64,000 bases of DNA from Sphingomonas anseongensis (GTDB lineage: Bacteria > Pseudomonadota > Alphaproteobacteria > Sphingomonadales > Sphingomonadaceae), in the NCBI RefSeq assembly GCF_023516495.1, contig NZ_JAMGBC010000001.1, positions 1,698,501-1,762,500 of the forward strand, read 5' to 3'. Under the pieces are notes generated by a model. It was not told the DNA's origin and ran no database searches. It saw nothing but the letters and a program-made list of their open reading frames with translations. A program made the translations under genes and the position numbers. Below, one piece after another: positions 1,974-17,912 of the stretch. The stretch's first letter is position 1, and each line of letters begins with the position of its first letter.

Positions 1974-2567
1974 TTAACCACCGGCCTTGAGGCCAAGACA
2001 AGACAATATGTCGCTGACCTGGCGCTCAGTTGTGGATAGGTCGCCGCCCGTATCGACCACGAAGTCGGCACGCGCGCGCTTCTCCTCGTCGGGCATCTGA
2101 CGAGCGATCAGCGCGGCGAGCTTCTCTTCGGTCATTCCCGGCCGCGCCAATACCCGCTCGCGTTGAATCTCTGCGGGCGCGGAAACGACGATGACCTTAT
2201 CGAACACCTCCGCTCCGCCGGTTTCGAACAGCAGCGGAATCTCGAACAACAGCGCCGGCTGGTCACCGTTTTCGACGATGAAGCGAGTCCGTTCGTGGTG
2301 GACCGAAGGGTGGACGATGGCTTCCAGCGCGGCAAGCTCGTCCGGATCCGAAAGCACCCGCTCCGAAAGCGCGTCGCGGTTCACTCCATCCGGACCGGTC
2401 GTTCCCGGAAATCTTTCCTCGATCTTGCCGACGAGCGATCCGCCCGGGCCCTGCAGCCGGCGCACGACCGCGTCGGCATCGAACACGGGCACACCGGCGC
2501 GCCTGAACATCTCAGCGACCGTCGATTTGCCCATTCCGATCGAGCCGGTGAGCGCGAGGCGGATCAC
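1974..2567 (-). CDS. coaE: Dephospho-CoA kinase
   Basis: This 197-residue P-loop kinase phosphorylates dephospho-CoA at the 3'-hydroxyl, the last step of coenzyme A synthesis. The Walker A motif GSIGMGKST lies at residues 8-16, and FDADAVVRRL and LLFETGGAEVFDKVIVV are family hallmarks. The start is a GTG at 2567 overlapping the maf stop by four bases (GTGA), which implies translational coupling. Longer in-frame readings upstream run through maf and look spurious. Confidence 0.94.
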   Translation of the reverse strand: MIRLALTGSIGMGKSTVAEMFRRAGVPVFDADAVVRRLQGPGGSLVGKIEERFPGTTGPDGVNRDALSERVLSDPDELAALEAIVHPSVHHERTRFIVENGDQPALLFEIPLLFETGGAEVFDKVIVVSAPAEIQRERVLARPGMTEEKLAALIARQMPDEEKRARADFVVDTGGDLSTTERQVSDILSCLGLKAGG

Positions 2568-3145
2568 GAGCTCATCACTCCGCGCTCGCGAAGGGCCGCC
2601 AGGAGAGGAAGGAGGGGCATGCCGAGGATGGTGAAGAAGCTGCCTTCGATGGTGTCGAACAACTGCACGCCTCGGCCTTCCAGTCGGAACACACCGACGC
2701 AATAGCCGACTTCCGGCCATTCGGCGTCGAGATATTCCTCGATGAACCCTTCAGACAGCGGCCGGACCTGCAGGGTCGCCTGGTCGCAATGCTTCCACTG
2801 GGGCTTTCCGCCGCGGGCAAGCGCGACGGCGCTGGTGAGGGTGATCGGCTTGCCCGAAAAGTGGCGCAGGTGGGCCCCCGCCTCTTCGCGGTCGACTGGC
2901 TTGCCGAACAGGGTTCCGGCGACGCTGACTACGGAATCGCTTCCGATTACCAAATCGCTGGTGCGCGATTTGCTCACCGCGAGCGCTTTTGCCTCCGCCA
3001 GCGCTGTCGCCAGTTGCGCCGGATCGCGGTGCCGCTCCTTGAAGCTGGCCTCATCAACGTCGGCGGGGATGCTGTCGAATGGAACTCCCGCCTGCTCCAA
3101 CATCTGGCGCCGGATCGGGCTCGAGGAAGCGAGGATTAGGGTCAA
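2564..3145 (-). CDS. maf: Maf-like nucleotide pyrophosphatase
   Basis: The 193-residue protein begins LILASSSPIRRQMLEQAG, the signature of Maf proteins. These hydrolyse non-canonical or modified nucleoside triphosphates to monophosphates and help keep nucleotide pools clean. A central conserved stretch is DLVIGSDSVVS. It heads the maf-coaE-dnaQ minus-strand cluster, and its upstream side is the 293-base gap proposed here as the replication origin, with hemE divergent on the other side. Which substrates this member prefers cannot be told from sequence. Confidence 0.92.
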   Translation of the reverse strand: MTLILASSSPIRRQMLEQAGVPFDSIPADVDEASFKERHRDPAQLATALAEAKALAVSKSRTSDLVIGSDSVVSVAGTLFGKPVDREEAGAHLRHFSGKPITLTSAVALARGGKPQWKHCDQATLQVRPLSEGFIEEYLDAEWPEVGYCVGVFRLEGRGVQLFDTIEGSFFTILGMPLLPLLAALRERGVMSS

Positions 3146-3438
3146 TTGAACAACCTTGTGGAAAAGCGTGCTCCTGCCCCTAGCGCGAGGAGGTGGGCAG
3201 TCTCAACGGGCCAGCTGTCCACCCGCTTGGCGGGTCAGTGCCCACATCCATTCACAAGCGGGTGCATCTATCCCCAGCCTGTGAATCGCGGGGGACTCAG
3301 CCGGCGACTCGCGGGATTCGCTGACATCCCGTTACCCCGCGCCTGTTGGAAATTCCGGAACGCTCCTCTATTTCCCGAGTCCAGCCGGACAACTACATCA
3401 CCAATTAGATTCTAAGAATCTCTATAGGGAGAGAGAGG
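3146..3438. other. Candidate chromosomal replication origin (oriC) between maf and hemE
   Basis: No plausible gene occupies this 293-base divergent gap. DnaA-box-like 9-mers relative to TTATNCACA or its complement lie at 3157-3165 (one mismatch), 3248-3256, 3268-3276 and 3280-3288 (two mismatches each). Seven GANTC sites, the CcrM methyltransferase target, lie within 3283-3420, starting at 3283, 3294, 3306, 3315, 3377, 3408 and 3416. The hemE side is AT-rich and carries an inverted repeat GATTCT-A-AGAATC at 3408-3420. In Caulobacter and relatives the origin is next to hemE. The origin role is inferred from position and motifs. Confidence 0.6.
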
Positions 3439-4503
3439 GTGGCCCGTTCGCCCCGCAACGCAGTGCCGGCGAGCGGAGCAGACAAGCCCCTGCTCAGCGT
3501 GCTTCGAGGACAGCGCCTGGCCACGCCGCCGATGTGGTTGATGAGGCAGGCGGGCCGGTATCTCCCGGAATATCGCCGCCTTCGCCAGGACAAGGGCAGC
3601 TTCCTGAACCTGGTCTGCGACAGCGCGGCTGCGGCCGACGTCACGCTCCAGCCGCTCGAACGCTTCGACTTCGACGCGGCGATCCTCTTCTCCGACATCC
3701 TGATCGTTCCGTTCGCGATCGGTCAGAATTTGAGCTTCGTCGCCGGCGAAGGGCCGCGTCTGACTCCGCCGCTGGTCTCGGCGGATCTCGATGCGCTTAC
3801 CCCGACCCTGACCCGCTTCGAGCCGATCTACGAGACCGTGCGCAAGGTGAAGACGAGGCTTTCGCCGGACAAGACGCTGATCGGCTTTGCCGGAAGTCCG
3901 TGGACGGTCGCCACCTACATGATTGCCGGCCAAGGTAGCCGCGACCAGTCCGAGACCCGGCGCCTGGCCTATTCCGACAGCGGGCGCTTCTCCGCGATCA
4001 TCGAGAGGATCGAAAAGGTCACGTTCCAGTATCTCTGCGGCCAGGTGGAAGCCGGTGCAGAGGTGCTTCAGCTGTTCGACAGCTGGGCCGGGAGCCTTGC
4101 GCCGAGCGAATTCGAGAAATGGGTGATCGCCCCGACCGCGCGTCTGGTGGAGAAGCTCCGTCACGAACACCCTGACGTCCCGATCGTCGGTTTCCCCAAG
4201 GGCGCGGGCGGGAAGATCGCGGCCTATGCCCGCGAAACCGGTGTCGATTGCGTCGGCCTCGACGAAACCGTCGATCCCCATTGGGCGAACCGCGAGCTTC
4301 CCAAAGGTCTTCCGGTCCAGGGCAACCTCGACCCGCTCGCCTTGCTTGCCGGCGGAGAGGCGATGCGTGTCGCCGTCAAGCAAGTGCTTGACGCTTTCTC
4401 CGAGCGCCCGCACATCTTCAACCTCGGGCACGGAATCCTTCCCGAAACTCCGATCGATCATGTCGAGCAGCTGGTTGCGCTCGTAAAGGGGACGAATGGC
4501 TGA
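3439..4503 (+). CDS. hemE: Uroporphyrinogen III decarboxylase
   Basis: This 354-residue cytoplasmic enzyme removes the four acetate carboxyl groups of uroporphyrinogen III to give coproporphyrinogen III. The N-terminal signature PMWLMRQAGRYLPEYR (about residues 31-46) holds the substrate-binding arginines. GFAGSPWTVATYM and the C-terminal FNLGHGILP are also diagnostic. The start is a GTG at 3439 preceded by a purine-rich GGGAGAGAGAGG. It overlaps hemJ by eight bases, so the two haem genes are coupled; hemC and hemD are about 30 kb away in this window. Confidence 0.97.
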   Translation: MARSPRNAVPASGADKPLLSVLRGQRLATPPMWLMRQAGRYLPEYRRLRQDKGSFLNLVCDSAAAADVTLQPLERFDFDAAILFSDILIVPFAIGQNLSFVAGEGPRLTPPLVSADLDALTPTLTRFEPIYETVRKVKTRLSPDKTLIGFAGSPWTVATYMIAGQGSRDQSETRRLAYSDSGRFSAIIERIEKVTFQYLCGQVEAGAEVLQLFDSWAGSLAPSEFEKWVIAPTARLVEKLRHEHPDVPIVGFPKGAGGKIAAYARETGVDCVGLDETVDPHWANRELPKGLPVQGNLDPLALLAGGEAMRVAVKQVLDAFSERPHIFNLGHGILPETPIDHVEQLVALVKGTNG

Positions 4504-6397: not shown

Positions 6398-7063
6398 ATG
6401 CTTAGCGGGTTCAGCTTCTCGAGTATTTTCACCCCTACCGGCATGGCTCAGCTCGGCCAGATCATCGTCGGCGACCTGACGATGGCCGGCGACAACGTCG
6501 TCATCATGGGGTCGCTTGCCTCGGGCCTGCCGGAGCGGGACCGAAGGCGAGTGCTCATGCTGGGCGTCGGCATGGCGCTCGGCTTCCTGATCACCTTCGC
6601 GGTGATCGCGACTCAGCTTCTCAAGATCACCGGGCTGGTGTTTGCCGGCGGGCTGCTTCTGCTCTGGGTCGCGTACAACATGGTCCGCGAGATCAGGCCG
6701 CGCCCGATCGTCGTTGCGGACGACGAGCTTACGGAAGTGGTCGAAGGTCCGCCGCGGACCAAGACTTTCCTCCAGGCCGCGATCCAAATCACCATCGCCG
6801 ACCTCAGCATGAGCCTCGACAACGTACTCCTGGTTGCGTCCATCGCCCGCGAGAACCCGGCCCTGCTCGTGATCGGGCTGACGTTCTCGGTGTTGTTCAT
6901 GGGCTTTGCCGCCAATTACGTCGCCAAGCTGATTCAGCGGTATCACTGGATCAATTATATCGGGCTCGCGGTGATCCTCTATGTCGCCGCCAGCATGATC
7001 TACGAGGGTTGGATGGGCGGCGAGCACGTGTTGGGGTTGAGGCAAGTGCTCGGCGCCGGCTAG
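6398..7063 (+). CDS. TerC family integral membrane protein, copy 1 (YjbE type)
   Basis: This 221-residue membrane protein is a TerC/YjbE-type transporter. The two signature acidic motifs are LTMAGDNVVIM (about residues 27-37) and SMSLDNVLLVA. Members of this group have been linked to manganese export and to metal loading of secreted proteins, but the substrate here is not shown by the sequence. A second, related gene follows directly, so the pair probably arose by duplication. It starts 25 bases after rho and may be cotranscribed with it. Confidence 0.85.
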   Translation: MLSGFSFSSIFTPTGMAQLGQIIVGDLTMAGDNVVIMGSLASGLPERDRRRVLMLGVGMALGFLITFAVIATQLLKITGLVFAGGLLLLWVAYNMVREIRPRPIVVADDELTEVVEGPPRTKTFLQAAIQITIADLSMSLDNVLLVASIARENPALLVIGLTFSVLFMGFAANYVAKLIQRYHWINYIGLAVILYVAASMIYEGWMGGEHVLGLRQVLGAG

Positions 7064-7128: not shown

Positions 7129-7869
7129 TTGTCGGGTCTGTTTCTAAGTGGCGCCGCAGCGCTCGTCGCGGGGCTCGGCCCGCCAGCCGGGATATGGCAG
7201 GACATTCTCCGCGACTTCTCCAACTTGGGGGAGCCGGCGGCGATGGCTGCCTTCTTCCAGGTGCTGATGATCGACCTCGTGCTCGCGGGGGACAACGCGA
7301 TCGTCGTCGGCGCGCTGGCTGCGGGCCTCTCTTCGGAACAGAGACGCAAGGTCATCATGATCGGCGTGCTCGCGGCCCTTGTCCTGAGGGTCGTCTTCGC
7401 GCTCGCCGTTACGCAGCTGCTCCAGGTCGTCGGCCTCATCCTTGCGGGCGGATTGTTGCTTTTGTGGGTGGCCTGGAAAATGTGGCGCGAATTGCGCCGC
7501 CCAAAAGACTGCTCGCCGGGGTCGGAAGAGATCGTGGGGGACGAGCGCTCGGGCGTCTACGCCGCGAAGAGCTTTTCCGGCGCCGTGTGGGGCGTGGCAA
7601 TTGCCGACGTCAGCATGAGCCTGGACAATGTGCTGGCAGTTGCAGGAGCGGCGCGTGAGCATCCTGGGATTCTCATCGTTGGCCTGATTATCGCGGTCAT
7701 CCTGATGGGAATCGCGGCCAATGTGATCGCCCGCTACATCGATCGCTTCCGCTGGATCGGATATGTTGGGTTGCTGGTTATCATGTGGGTTGCTGTGAAG
7801 ATGATCTGGGACGGCTATCACGACGTCGCCCCGGTACTTGGCTGGCCGGCCGTCGCCAATGCGGTTTGA
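7129..7869 (+). CDS. TerC family integral membrane protein, copy 2 (YjbE type)
   Basis: The protein has about 246 residues and repeats the layout of the preceding gene, with MIDLVLAGDNAIVVGALA near the N-terminus and DVSMSLDNVLAVAG in the second half. Start choice is uncertain. A TTG at 7129 preceded by GTGGGG keeps the ILRDFSNLGEPAA stretch expected before the first helix. An ATG at 7243 with GGGGGAG nine bases upstream is the best conventional start but gives a shorter N-terminus. The stop at 7869 is 32 bases before the mnmE start. Metal export is the likely role by family. Confidence 0.8.
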   Translation: MSGLFLSGAAALVAGLGPPAGIWQDILRDFSNLGEPAAMAAFFQVLMIDLVLAGDNAIVVGALAAGLSSEQRRKVIMIGVLAALVLRVVFALAVTQLLQVVGLILAGGLLLLWVAWKMWRELRRPKDCSPGSEEIVGDERSGVYAAKSFSGAVWGVAIADVSMSLDNVLAVAGAAREHPGILIVGLIIAVILMGIAANVIARYIDRFRWIGYVGLLVIMWVAVKMIWDGYHDVAPVLGWPAVANAV

Positions 7870-10911: not shown

Positions 10912-11528
10912 TCGACCGCTTGGCCGAAGCGGCCACCCGCAAGGTTTCACGTGAAACATTTGACCTTCTGCAGCGGTATGCCGAGCTGCTTCGTGACGAA
11001 TCGGCCAGGCAAAACCTGGTCGCTGCGTCGACGCTCGAGTCGTTATGGGAACGGCACATCCTCGACAGCGCCCAGCTAGTGCGATTCGAGCCTTTTGATG
11101 GCGCATCGTGGGCCGACATCGGCTCCGGCGCCGGACTTCCAGGGCTGGTCATTGCCGCGCTGGTGGAAGGGCCCATCCTCCTTATCGAGCCGCGCCGGCT
11201 TCGGGCCGAATTCCTCGAGCGCTGCGTCGCCGAGCTTGGGCTGGGGAACCGAGTCGCGGTCGCTGCGTCGAAGGTCGAGAAGGCCACTGGCCGATTCGAC
11301 GCGATCACTGCCCGCGCGGTCGCCTCGGTCGACAAATTGCTGCAACTATCCACGCATCTGTCCACAAGAAATAGCCTGTGGGTGCTCCCGAAGGGTCGAA
11401 GCGCGCAATCGGAACTGGCTGAAGCCCGGCGACGCTGGCATTGTGAGGCCGAAACAGTTCCCAGCTTCACCGATCCCGATTCCGAGATCCTCGTGCTGCG
11501 GAACGTGAAGCCAAGGGGTGGGCGATGA
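10908..11528 (+). CDS. rsmG: 16S rRNA (guanine-527-N7) methyltransferase RsmG
   Basis: The 206-residue SAM-dependent enzyme methylates N7 of G527 in 16S rRNA. It shows the RsmG pattern [25 protein letters not shown] followed by the SAM-binding loop [12 protein letters not shown] and then TARAVAS. The ATG at 10908 overlaps the mnmG stop, and its 3' end overlaps the parA start by four bases (ATGA). The coding sequence contains a near-perfect parS site at codons about 12-17, which puts a segregation element inside a gene. Confidence 0.95.
10943..10958. promoter_or_regulatory. parS site 2, inside rsmG
   Basis: GGTTTCACGTGAAACA matches the parS consensus TGTTTCACGTGAAACA at 15 of 16 positions. 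Only the outermost left base differs, and the inner 14-base palindrome is perfect. The site lies within the start of rsmG, where it encodes part of KVSRET. Together with the site at 9180 it forms a pair 1.76 kb apart, upstream of parAB. Confidence 0.9.
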
Positions 11529-12307
11529 TCCGCGTCGCGATCGCGAACCAGAAGGGTGGCGTCGGCAAGACGACGACAGCGATCAACCTGGCGACGGCGC
11601 TCGCCGCGATCGGCTGGAAGGTCCTGCTGGTCGATCTCGACCCGCAGGGCAATGCCTCGACGGGGCTCGGCGTCCCGCAGTCGAAGCGCGAGAAGTCGAG
11701 CTATGACGTGCTGATTGGCTCGGCAGGAGTCCAGGAGAGCGTGATCCCGACGCGTGTGCCGAGGCTCGATCTTCTGCCGGCCACCGTCGACCTTTCCGGT
11801 GCTGAGGTGGAGCTCGTTTCCCTCAACGACCGCGCGCACCGCCTCGACAATGCGCTTTCGGCTACGACGCCCGGCCGGTGGGACATCTGCCTGATTGACT
11901 GCCCGCCGTCGCTTGGACTGCTGACCGTGAACGCGCTCGTTGCTGCGCGGCACCTTTTGGTCCCGCTTCAGTCGGAATTCTTTGCTTTAGAAGGACTTAG
12001 CCAGCTGCTGCAGACCGTCGAGCGGATCCGCACTGCGTTCAATCCGGAGCTTGCGATCCTCGGCGTTGCGCTGACGATGTTTGATCGCCGCAATCGCCTC
12101 TCGCAGCAGGTATCCGACGACGTTCGCGCCTGCCTGGGCCGCGTGGTGTTCGACACCGTGGTGCCGCGTAACGTTCGCCTGTCGGAAGCGCCGAGCCATG
12201 GCCTGCCGGCACTGATCTACGACCTGCGCTGCCCCGGTTCGGAAGCCTATGTGAGCCTTGCACGCGAGCTGATCGCTCGTCTCCCGCGTAGGGCCGAAGC
12301 CGCATGA
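11525..12307 (+). CDS. parA: Chromosome partitioning ATPase ParA
   Basis: The 260-residue Walker-type ATPase has the deviant P-loop KGGVGKTT at residues 10-17 with the preceding signature IANQ, then VDLDPQGNASTGLG. It binds DNA non-specifically as an ATP dimer and moves ParB-parS complexes. It is the short chromosomal form without an N-terminal DNA-binding domain. It overlaps rsmG by four bases upstream and parB by four bases downstream, so all three are coupled. Confidence 0.97.
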   Translation: MIRVAIANQKGGVGKTTTAINLATALAAIGWKVLLVDLDPQGNASTGLGVPQSKREKSSYDVLIGSAGVQESVIPTRVPRLDLLPATVDLSGAEVELVSLNDRAHRLDNALSATTPGRWDICLIDCPPSLGLLTVNALVAARHLLVPLQSEFFALEGLSQLLQTVERIRTAFNPELAILGVALTMFDRRNRLSQQVSDDVRACLGRVVFDTVVPRNVRLSEAPSHGLPALIYDLRCPGSEAYVSLARELIARLPRRAEAA

Positions 12308-13209
12308 GCGACAAGAAGACTTCGGGACTCGGCCGCGGCCTGGCCGCCTTGCTCGATGAAGCGGTTCGCCCCGCGGCAGCGCCGCAGGCGGAGGCTGGCC
12401 AAATTCCATCCGCCACAGGCGTGCGCGAGGTGGAAATCGGCAGAATCCGGCCGAATCCCGCCCAACCGCGAATGCATTTCGATGAGGAGAGTATCGCGGA
12501 GCTGGCCGATTCGATCGGCGAGCGCGGCGTTCTCCAGCCGGTCCTGTTGCGGCCTGACGGCGAGAATTTCCAGCTGGTCGCCGGCGAGCGCCGCTGGCGG
12601 GCAGCCCAGCGGGCTCGCCTGCACACCATCCCTGCGATCGTTCGCGACATCGACGATTCGACGTCGGCCGAGATTGCTCTGATCGAGAACGTGCAGCGGC
12701 AGGACCTCAACGCGATTGAGGAAGCCGAGGGCTACAAGAAGCTCGTCGAAAAATATGGCCACACGCAGGACGCGTTGGCCAAGCTGGTTCACAAGTCGCG
12801 AAGCCATATAGCTAACCTGTTGAGATTGCTGGAACTTCCTCTGGAAGTGAAGCAAATGCTACTGCAAGGCGATATCAGCATGGGTCATGCCCGGGCTGTG
12901 GCCACCAGCGAAGATCCGGCCGGCCTCGCCTGGGAAATCGTCGAAAAGGGTCTCTCGGTGCGCCAGGCGGAGGCCTTGGCGAAACGGAGCAAGCCCGGTT
13001 CTCCGGAGGGAGCGCCGCGCGCATCCGCTCCGCGAGCACAGCAGGGCAGCGATGCTGATCTCGCCGCGCTGGAGCGACAGCTGGGCGACATGCTCGGCCT
13101 GAAGGTCAAGGTCGCGAACAATGGCAACCGCGGCACCGTCACCTTGAGCTATTCGAGCCTCGACCAGCTCGACATGATCTGCCAGCGCCTCTCGGGCGAG
13201 CCCATCTAG
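12304..13209 (+). CDS. parB: Chromosome partitioning protein ParB
   Basis: The 301-residue protein starts with the typical LGRGLAALLDE segment. The ParB/Srx CTP-binding core contains NPAQPRMHFDEESIAEL and the arginine box GERRWRAAQRA. A KorB-type helix-turn-helix (HTQDALAKLVHKSRSHIANLLRL) recognises parS. The C-terminal dimerisation part is LERQLGDMLGLKVKV. Two parS sites lie upstream at 9180 and 10943. The next gene, holA, is convergent with only three bases between stops. Confidence 0.97.
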   Translation: MSDKKTSGLGRGLAALLDEAVRPAAAPQAEAGQIPSATGVREVEIGRIRPNPAQPRMHFDEESIAELADSIGERGVLQPVLLRPDGENFQLVAGERRWRAAQRARLHTIPAIVRDIDDSTSAEIALIENVQRQDLNAIEEAEGYKKLVEKYGHTQDALAKLVHKSRSHIANLLRLLELPLEVKQMLLQGDISMGHARAVATSEDPAGLAWEIVEKGLSVRQAEALAKRSKPGSPEGAPRASAPRAQQGSDADLAALERQLGDMLGLKVKVANNGNRGTVTLSYSSLDQLDMICQRLSGEPI

Positions 13210-17731: not shown

Positions 17732-17831
17732 CGGCGATCCTCGAGAGTGGCGTTGCGACGGCGTTATAGATGCTGCCGTCGAGGCCGCAAGCGGGGGCCT
17801 TCGGGAAACGCCTTGTGGTTCCGGTGCAACA

Positions 17832-17851
17832 GACTCGCGCCGAATCGAGTC
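17832..17851. promoter_or_regulatory. Cluster of three GANTC (CcrM) sites upstream of the barrel gene
   Basis: GACTC at 17832-17836, GAATC at 17842-17846 and GAGTC at 17847-17851 fall within 20 bases in the 181-base divergent gap between the DUF3576 gene and the outer-membrane gene. In alphaproteobacteria GANTC methylation by CcrM together with GcrA controls cell-cycle promoters. The motifs are seen directly; a regulatory role is inferred. Confidence 0.4.
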
Positions 17852-17912
17852 GGTCATGGAACCTTCAGCTTGCCCGGCCTATATGCATTCGCGGAACAGG
17901 GAGTTGCCGCTA

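What the first reader, a model, noticed from the sequence alone, without database searches (positions are those of the whole stretch)
3146..3438. GANTC-rich candidate replication origin between maf and hemE
The 293-base gap has four DnaA-box-like 9-mers and seven GANTC (CcrM) sites within 138 bases (3283-3420), where roughly one or fewer would be expected by chance at this base composition. It lies next to hemE, where the Caulobacter origin lies, and 6-8 kb from two parS sites. The dense GANTC cluster suggests that initiation here could be tied to adenine methylation, in the manner known for Caulobacter.
Basis: partly seen in the sequence, partly recalled or inferred. Interest (0 to 1): 0.72.

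Follow-up and report, generated by a model that had tools for sequence, protein, structure and literature searches.

The report
Chromosome replication origin rich in methylation sites
The gap between two genes is very probably where this bacterium starts copying its chromosome, and across its genus that spot keeps unusually many target sites of the cell-cycle DNA methylase CcrM, although what methylation does there is untested.

Summary
In detail: seven GANTC sites in the 293-base maf/hemE gap, the densest 138-base cluster in the 178 kb of this genome scanned. The origin reading is well supported. GGGCAGGG strand polarity switches near 512.65 kb and, in two equally good fits, at 1,643,966-1,674,603 or 1,699,527-1,708,290; the gap lies in the second. 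The only two parS-like sites found are 5.7 and 7.5 kb away, and DnaA-box-like elements are conserved in 36 same-genus gaps. There GANTC is 4.4-fold over expectation; the 23 other pentamers of its type stay at or below 1.5-fold. It stays 2.8-fold with the two fixed sites masked and is also enriched in 15 further sphingomonad loci. One fixed site lies inside a DnaA-box-like element (24 of 36). Upstream of ccrM lies a comparable cluster, so the gap is not unique. Not supported: methylation control 'in the manner known for Caulobacter', where ccrM loss leaves initiation control normal (PMC3973325). The location is already predicted for Sphingomonadaceae (PMC4741004). Ordinary in place and kind, with a testable methylation feature.

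The parts
3146..3438 (.). maf/hemE divergent gap, candidate oriC (genome C1:1701646-1701938)
   Evidence: lies in one of the two best intervals for the GGGCAGGG polarity switch; conserved in 36 same-genus genomes
3157..3165 (-). DnaA-box-like TTTTCCACA (element E1)
   Evidence: 1 mismatch; TGTGGA in 36 of 36 rows
3248..3256 (+). degenerate DnaA-box-like element E3 (CCATTCACA here; TCCAC in 31 of 36 rows)
   Evidence: conserved block; degenerate in this genome
3268..3276 (+). DnaA-box-like CTATCCCCA (element E4a)
   Evidence: 2 mismatches; conserved block
3280..3288 (-). DnaA-box-like CGATTCACA with GANTC 3283-3287 inside it (element E4b)
   Evidence: TGTGANTC in 24 of 36 rows, TGTGGA box in 9, TGTGAAT without GANTC in 3
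3304..3312 (.). GCGACTCGC, the most conserved GANTC site (3306-3310)
   Evidence: GANTC at this column in 33 of 36 rows
3283..3420 (.). cluster of seven GANTC sites
3346..3374 (+). probable hemE promoter: TTGGAA, 17 bases, TATTTC (read by eye); TGTTGG block
   Evidence: TGTTGG in 36 of 36 gaps; promoter role inferred; 1 GANTC site in 36 rows between 3342 and 3394
3386..3430 (.). A+T-rich stretch before hemE, candidate unwinding element
   Evidence: 63-67% A+T in 30-base windows against about 35% in the window; role inferred
2564..3145 (-). maf
   Evidence: Pfam PF02545
3439..4503 (+). hemE, uroporphyrinogen decarboxylase
   Evidence: Pfam PF01208
9181..9194 (+). parS-like GTTTCACGTGGAAC
10944..10957 (.). 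parS-like GTTTCACGTGAAAC
11525..12307 (+). parA
   Evidence: Pfam AAA_31/CbiA
12304..13209 (+). parB
   Evidence: Pfam ParB_N, HTH_ParB, ParB_C

Best explanation
The gap is the DnaA-dependent origin of the chromosome, fused with the divergent maf/hemE promoter region. DnaA binds a set of conserved boxes (3157-3288) and opens the A+T-rich stretch before hemE; ParB-parS 6-8 kb away segregates the new copies. The seven GANTC sites are targets of the encoded CcrM and are kept at high density by selection. After the forks leave they would be the first chromosomal sites to become hemimethylated and, if CcrM acts late as in Caulobacter, the longest to stay so. Most likely this marks the origin region as newly copied, acting on DnaA binding at the box that contains a GANTC, on hemE-leader transcription, or both. 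Shown here by sequence: origin position within limits, conservation, GANTC enrichment, presence of CcrM and GcrA genes. Inferred: DnaA binding, unwinding, methylation in this organism, and any effect of methylation.
For: GGGCAGGG lies mostly on one strand per arm: 130 of 145 in the fitted orientation, 15 against; terminus switch at 512,651, origin switch in two equally good intervals, one of which (1,699,527-1,708,290) holds the gap. Genes diverge from the gap: five minus-strand genes to its left in the window, ten plus-strand genes to its right up to parB. Only two parS-like sites were found in the genome (pattern with up to 1 mismatch), both close by. DnaA boxes with <=1 mismatch: 60 in 36 gaps against 1.2 in shuffles. 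GANTC: 180 observed against 41.1 expected in 36 gaps, 15.8 per kb against 2.1 in the flanks and 2.3 in 225 other intergenic regions from 20 of the 36 relatives. CcrM: N6_N4_Mtase plus RAMA; GcrA. In another sphingomonad, Sphingomonas sp. AAP5, GANTC is the most abundant m6A motif (PMC8067484 passage).
Against: No experiment; no marker-frequency or methylation data for this organism. GC skew is almost nil. The polarity fit alone also allows 1,643,966-1,674,603, and fits 2.1 log units worse reach 1.49-1.84 Mb. Few near-consensus DnaA boxes in this genome itself. No dif site was found with an E. coli-type core. In Caulobacter CcrM is not needed for initiation control. A GANTC cluster of similar density stands upstream of ccrM, where no origin is expected, so density alone does not point to initiation. 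The 36 genomes are related, so sites are not independent, though gaps average 53% identity.
Confidence: 0.8

Rival explanations
1. It is the origin, but the GANTC cluster serves transcription: GcrA/CcrM-dependent timing of hemE (or maf), not initiation.
For: A comparable cluster lies upstream of ccrM itself: six sites in 152 bases in this genome, and 4 or more sites within 600 bases before the DPPYN codon in 28 of 30 loci from this and other families; in the other 2 the locus begins within 70 bases. In one relative this region (6 sites in 200 bases) is denser than the origin gap. Leader-side sites 3395-3438 occur in 26 of 36 genomes. GANTC enrichment between genes is general in Alphaproteobacteria (PMC3973325).
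Against: The conserved promoter block 3342-3394 holds 1 site in 36 genomes and the maf side 3146-3211 holds 1; most sites lie between the DnaA-box-like elements and the promoter. Apart from two anchors the positions drift, whereas upstream of ccrM the spacing looks, by eye, fixed among same-genus loci.
Confidence: 0.3
2. The cluster only reflects relaxed avoidance of GANTC in intergenic DNA.
For: GANTC is under-represented in coding DNA and over-represented between genes in this class (PMC3973325).
Against: Other intergenic DNA of relatives has 2.3 per kb against 15.8 in this gap; 39 divergent gaps of 100-600 bases in relatives hold at most 2 sites; the gap is above expectation, not merely back at it. 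Exception: one tandem region among 131 of at least 100 bases in relatives, upstream of ccrM, holds 6.
Confidence: 0.05
3. The origin lies elsewhere, for example near dnaA or in the 1.64-1.67 Mb interval, and the gap is an ordinary promoter region.
For: dnaA is at C1:197,892, about 0.72 Mb away; GC skew gives no clear peak; the polarity fit allows a second interval.
Against: parS, parAB and conserved DnaA boxes are all here; [quoted passage not shown]
Confidence: 0.05

Closest known systems
Predicted hemE-linked oriC of Sphingomonadaceae (Sphingopyxis granuli TFA and others in DoriC; PMC4741004, passages read)
   Same: Place next to hemE, conserved gene order, DnaA boxes and a putative unwinding element
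   Different: Here maf adjoins hemE directly; the PF03618 (COG1806) gene found in other families of the order is absent genus-wide. GANTC enrichment is not mentioned in the passages that I read
Caulobacter crescentus Cori (described in PMC1914354 and PMC3973325, passages read)
   Same: hemE-linked, DnaA boxes, GANTC motifs present
   Different: No exact TTAA-N7-TTAA CtrA box in any of 36 gaps, IHF consensus in at most 3 of 36, no COG1806 neighbour; CcrM not required for initiation control in Caulobacter
Escherichia coli oriC with Dam/SeqA (role of Dam in initiation noted in PMC3973325; details recalled)
   Same: High density of sites of an orphan adenine methylase in a DnaA origin
   Different: Different methylase and motif; no SeqA-like reader searched for
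Agrobacterium ori2/repABC with CcrM (PMC11514494, abstract and passages read)
   Same: GANTC-rich replication module whose timing depends on CcrM
   Different: RepC origin of a secondary replicon; the DnaA-dependent ori1 showed no obvious CcrM effect

Membership tests
hemE-linked DnaA-type alphaproteobacterial oriC | intergenic region adjoining hemE | tested here: met
   hemE PF01208 at 3439-4503
hemE-linked DnaA-type alphaproteobacterial oriC | several DnaA boxes | tested here: met
   met by conservation: 60 boxes with <=1 mismatch in 36 gaps against 1.2 in shuffles; weak in this genome alone
hemE-linked DnaA-type alphaproteobacterial oriC | A+T content above the genome average | tested here: met
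   42% A+T in the gap against about 35% in the window, up to 67% near hemE
hemE-linked DnaA-type alphaproteobacterial oriC | switch of strand polarity at the site | tested here: met
   GGGCAGGG fit includes the gap in one of two equally good intervals; raw GC skew nearly uninformative
hemE-linked DnaA-type alphaproteobacterial oriC | DnaA binding and autonomous replication | not testable with these tools
   needs an experiment
Caulobacter-type CtrA-gated origin | CtrA boxes TTAA-N7-TTAA | tested here: not met
   0 exact boxes in 36 gaps
Caulobacter-type CtrA-gated origin | IHF site | tested here: not met
   two consensus forms hit in 2 and 3 of 36 gaps
Caulobacter-type CtrA-gated origin | COG1806 (PF03618) neighbour | tested here: not met
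   0 of 37 genomes of the genus, 23 of 24 of other families in the order
Methylation-controlled origin (Dam/SeqA-like) | dense sites of a genome-encoded adenine methylase | tested here: met
   CcrM identity by domains, activity not tested
Methylation-controlled origin (Dam/SeqA-like) | reader protein for hemimethylated sites acting on the origin | not tested
   GcrA is present but nothing links it to this gap
Methylation-controlled origin (Dam/SeqA-like) | initiation depends on methylation state | not testable with these tools
   negative in Caulobacter (PMC3973325); unknown here

The most novel reading that the evidence does not exclude
In this sphingomonad lineage, where exact CtrA boxes are missing from the origin, once-per-cycle initiation is gated by CcrM: a conserved DnaA box with a GANTC inside it, plus a largely position-free GANTC cluster around it, bind DnaA differently when hemimethylated. 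That would be an alphaproteobacterial counterpart of Dam/SeqA control.
Probability: 0.2. Interest if true: 0.75.

Novelty: new member of a known kind. Interest (0 to 1): 0.42.

Why it matters
Why CcrM is so widely kept in Alphaproteobacteria, and whether it ever controls initiation at a DnaA origin, is open; the direct tests of loss or depletion that I read (Caulobacter, Agrobacterium ori1) were negative. A lineage whose origin lacks exact CtrA boxes but keeps 2 to 9 CcrM sites, in 24 of 36 genomes one inside a DnaA-box-like element, is a sensible place to test it. If methylation has no effect there either, the density still needs explaining.

Tried and rejected
GC skew as an origin test: nearly flat in the window and in 20 sampled stretches plus the window (+0.0076 against -0.0077), so weak. 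E. coli-type dif core with up to 3 mismatches: no hit in the genome. CtrA boxes and IHF consensus sites in the gap: absent or rare. DnaA-trio motif: one paper's passages were looked at (PMC8287927; listing) and the sequence between boxes and A+T-rich stretch inspected by eye; no clean trio run in the required orientation, so not claimed. Polarity in three relatives: the listing was cut (100 of 135 forward sites for one genome, 50 of 107 for the second, none of 93 for the third), so no breakpoint was fitted. Literature on GANTC in sphingomonad origins: the listings, and the passages that I opened, showed no report of it, in this library only; PMC8067484 was opened with a term search and reports GANTC methylation in a Sphingomonas genome but, in the passages shown, nothing on its origin of replication. 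The gene finder is a rough home-made one (it starts maf at 3103 instead of 3145), so its intergenic rates are approximate; by sites per kb some own intergenic regions near 100 bases long with 2 sites (up to 19.4) come close to the gap (20.9 over the 335 bases that the finder gave it). A census over the whole genome was not made; 178 kb of own genome and 400 kb of relatives (one 20-kb stretch from each of 20 of 36) were examined. One of the 37 same-genus genomes (L008) was dropped because its contig ends before maf. Of 24 genomes of other families 23 hemE-upstream loci were fetched. Of 65 more distant alphaproteobacterial loci, 62 had enough upstream DNA and hold a mean of 2.06 GANTC in 500 bases, so the enrichment is not class-wide.

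Full report
WHAT IS THERE. The window is C1:1698501-1762500 of a 2.23 Mb genome in two contigs, in a genus with no other genus of its family in the comparison set. The nearest loci with a named organism are sphingomonads (best HemE match 66%, Sphingomonas sp. BN140010). The gap 3146-3438 lies between divergent maf and hemE. GANTC sites start at 3283, 3294, 3306, 3315, 3377, 3408 and 3416. Shuffles of the gap reach seven in 0.04% of 5000, shuffles of the 138-base stretch in none of 5000. The window as a whole has fewer GANTC than shuffles (225 against 367).

IS IT THE ORIGIN. FtsK-type polar octamers (motif recalled) were used because GC skew is almost flat. Of 77 forward and 68 reverse GGGCAGGG, a two-breakpoint fit places 130 of 145 in the fitted orientation, with a terminus switch at 512,651 and an origin switch in two equally good intervals, 1,643,966-1,674,603 and 1,699,527-1,708,290; the gap (1,701,646-1,701,938) lies in the second. 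Next-best fits, 2.1 log units worse, extend to 1.49-1.84 Mb, so polarity gives the region and not the base. In the window the five genes left of the gap run leftwards and the ten right of it run rightwards up to parB. The only two places matching GTTTCACGTGRAAC with up to one mismatch are at window 9181 and 10944, with parA and parB close by. dnaA lies far off; [quoted passage not shown] PMC4741004 states that the origin has been predicted close to hemE for most Sphingomonadaceae in DoriC. The location is therefore expected and not new.

ANATOMY BY COMPARISON. HemE was found in 61 of 61 genomes searched. The maf-hemE gap could be cut out in 36 of 37 same-genus genomes, this one included (one contig end), with 42-95% pairwise identity, mean 53%. 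Conserved blocks: E1 near maf (TGTGGA in 36 of 36); TAGCGCG; E3 (TCCAC in 31 of 36; this genome is one of the five without it); E4, a box-like TCCCCAG or TCCACAG in many rows followed by TGTGAAT or TGTGGA; GCGACTCGC; TGTTGG in 36 of 36, with a plausible -10 about 17 bases on (probable hemE promoter, inferred); an A+T-rich leader. DnaA boxes with 0, <=1 and <=2 mismatches number 8, 60 and 117 in 36 gaps against 0, 1.2 and 20.5 in shuffles. There is no exact TTAA-N7-TTAA in any of the 36, and IHF consensus sites occur in 2 or 3.

GANTC IS SPECIFICALLY ENRICHED. In the 36 gaps GANTC occurs 180 times against 41.1 expected from base composition (4.4-fold). The other 23 pentamers with each base once reach at most 1.46-fold. 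The same loci's flanks have GANTC at 0.65 of expectation, 2.1 per kb against 15.8 in the gap. Counts per gap run from 2 to 9, mean 5.0. As control for intergenic DNA in general, 400 kb from 20 relatives gave 225 intergenic regions with 2.34 per kb, and 39 divergent gaps of 100-600 bases with 0-2 sites. One region broke the rule: 6 sites in 200 bases in L209, which by the coordinates lies upstream of ccrM. In 178 kb of own genome the gap ranks first by count of 40 intergenic regions of at least 100 bases (7 sites, next 3). Two columns are fixed: 3306 in 33 of 36 and 3283 in 24 of 36; the rest drift. With the two anchor motifs masked GANTC stays at 2.83-fold (111 against 39.2), next pentamer 1.53. 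Sites avoid the maf-side block (1 in 36) and the promoter block (1 in 36) and fill the space in between and the leader. In 15 sphingomonad loci (HemE 61-66% identical; some are unnamed bins) the 400 bases before hemE have 83 against 21.7 expected (3.8-fold; next pentamer 1.93). In 23 loci of other families of the order it is 1.38-fold, nearly half of it from two loci with 10 each, and in 62 other alphaproteobacterial loci the mean is 2.06 in 500 bases. The feature thus belongs to this lineage, not to the class.

A GANTC INSIDE A DNAA-BOX-LIKE ELEMENT. At E4b, 24 of 36 rows read TGTGANTC, 9 read TGTGGA, and 3 read TGTGAAT with another last base (one row that the script counted in both classes has its TGTGGA only downstream). 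On the minus strand these are the same DnaA-box-like element with or without a CcrM site in it. This is sequence evidence only. Among the 15 further sphingomonad loci TGTGANTC was found in 1 and CGANTCG in 5, so these details are not family-wide.

METHYLASE AND READER. One protein with N6_N4_Mtase and RAMA domains is encoded at C1:566656; RAMA was found in 58 of 61 genomes, and among the 14 control genomes only in Caulobacter. GcrA is present (its controls rang in Caulobacter and, unexplained, in Sulfolobus). In Sphingomonas sp. AAP5 GANTC is reported as the most abundant m6A motif (PMC8067484 passage). Upstream of ccrM lies another GANTC group, six sites at -338 to -191 from the DPPYN codon (at most 4 in any 138 bases there), with similar spacing, by eye, in many same-genus loci. 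Fixed spacing there and drifting positions at the origin hint at different uses; this is inference.

MECHANISM. I take the gap to be the origin (about 0.9) and hold the overall statement at 0.8. That the GANTC density is selected for I consider very likely. What for is undecided: marking the origin region as newly copied with an effect on DnaA (about 0.35; the strong form 0.2), or GcrA/CcrM timing of hemE or maf transcription (0.3), or both. In Caulobacter, where GANTC motifs in the origin are already noted, deletion of ccrM left initiation control normal, though over-expression gives extra chromosomes (PMC3973325 section 15); a review leans towards CcrM control nonetheless (PMC6090056 passage). 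In Agrobacterium CcrM affected ori2 but not obviously ori1 (PMC11514494 passages).

VERDICT. Real, well conserved, ordinary as to place and kind, with a lineage-specific density of CcrM sites that five literature searches (listings) did not show as reported for sphingomonad origins.

Noticed in passing
genus-wide; window 3146-3438: The PF03618 (COG1806, Kinase-PPPase) gene is missing from 37 of 37 genomes of the genus (some incomplete) and present in 23 of 24 of other families in the order, mostly by the coordinates right beside hemE; the short maf-hemE gap fits that loss.
   Followed up: yes
L191 (G000:C1 near 566656), upstream of ccrM: Six GANTC sites within 152 bases upstream of ccrM, with spacing repeated in many same-genus loci; possible autoregulation by methylation.
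   Followed up: partly
L074 and L075, 500 bases before hemE: Two genomes of one genus of another family have 14 GANTC sites each in the maf-hemE interval, all in the last 500 bases before hemE, while most other outgroup loci have few: possibly an independent gain.
   Followed up: no
window 17732-17912: Second densest GANTC group in the window, 4 starts in 138 bases from 17832, mostly in a divergent gap.
   Followed up: no
whole genome: GC skew is near zero in sampled stretches while GGGCAGGG polarity is strong, so skew-based origin finders may do badly in this genome.
   Followed up: partly
window 6398-7063 and 7129-7869: Two neighbouring, similar-looking membrane protein genes of TerC type between rho and mnmE (all three names recalled, not tested).
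   Followed up: no
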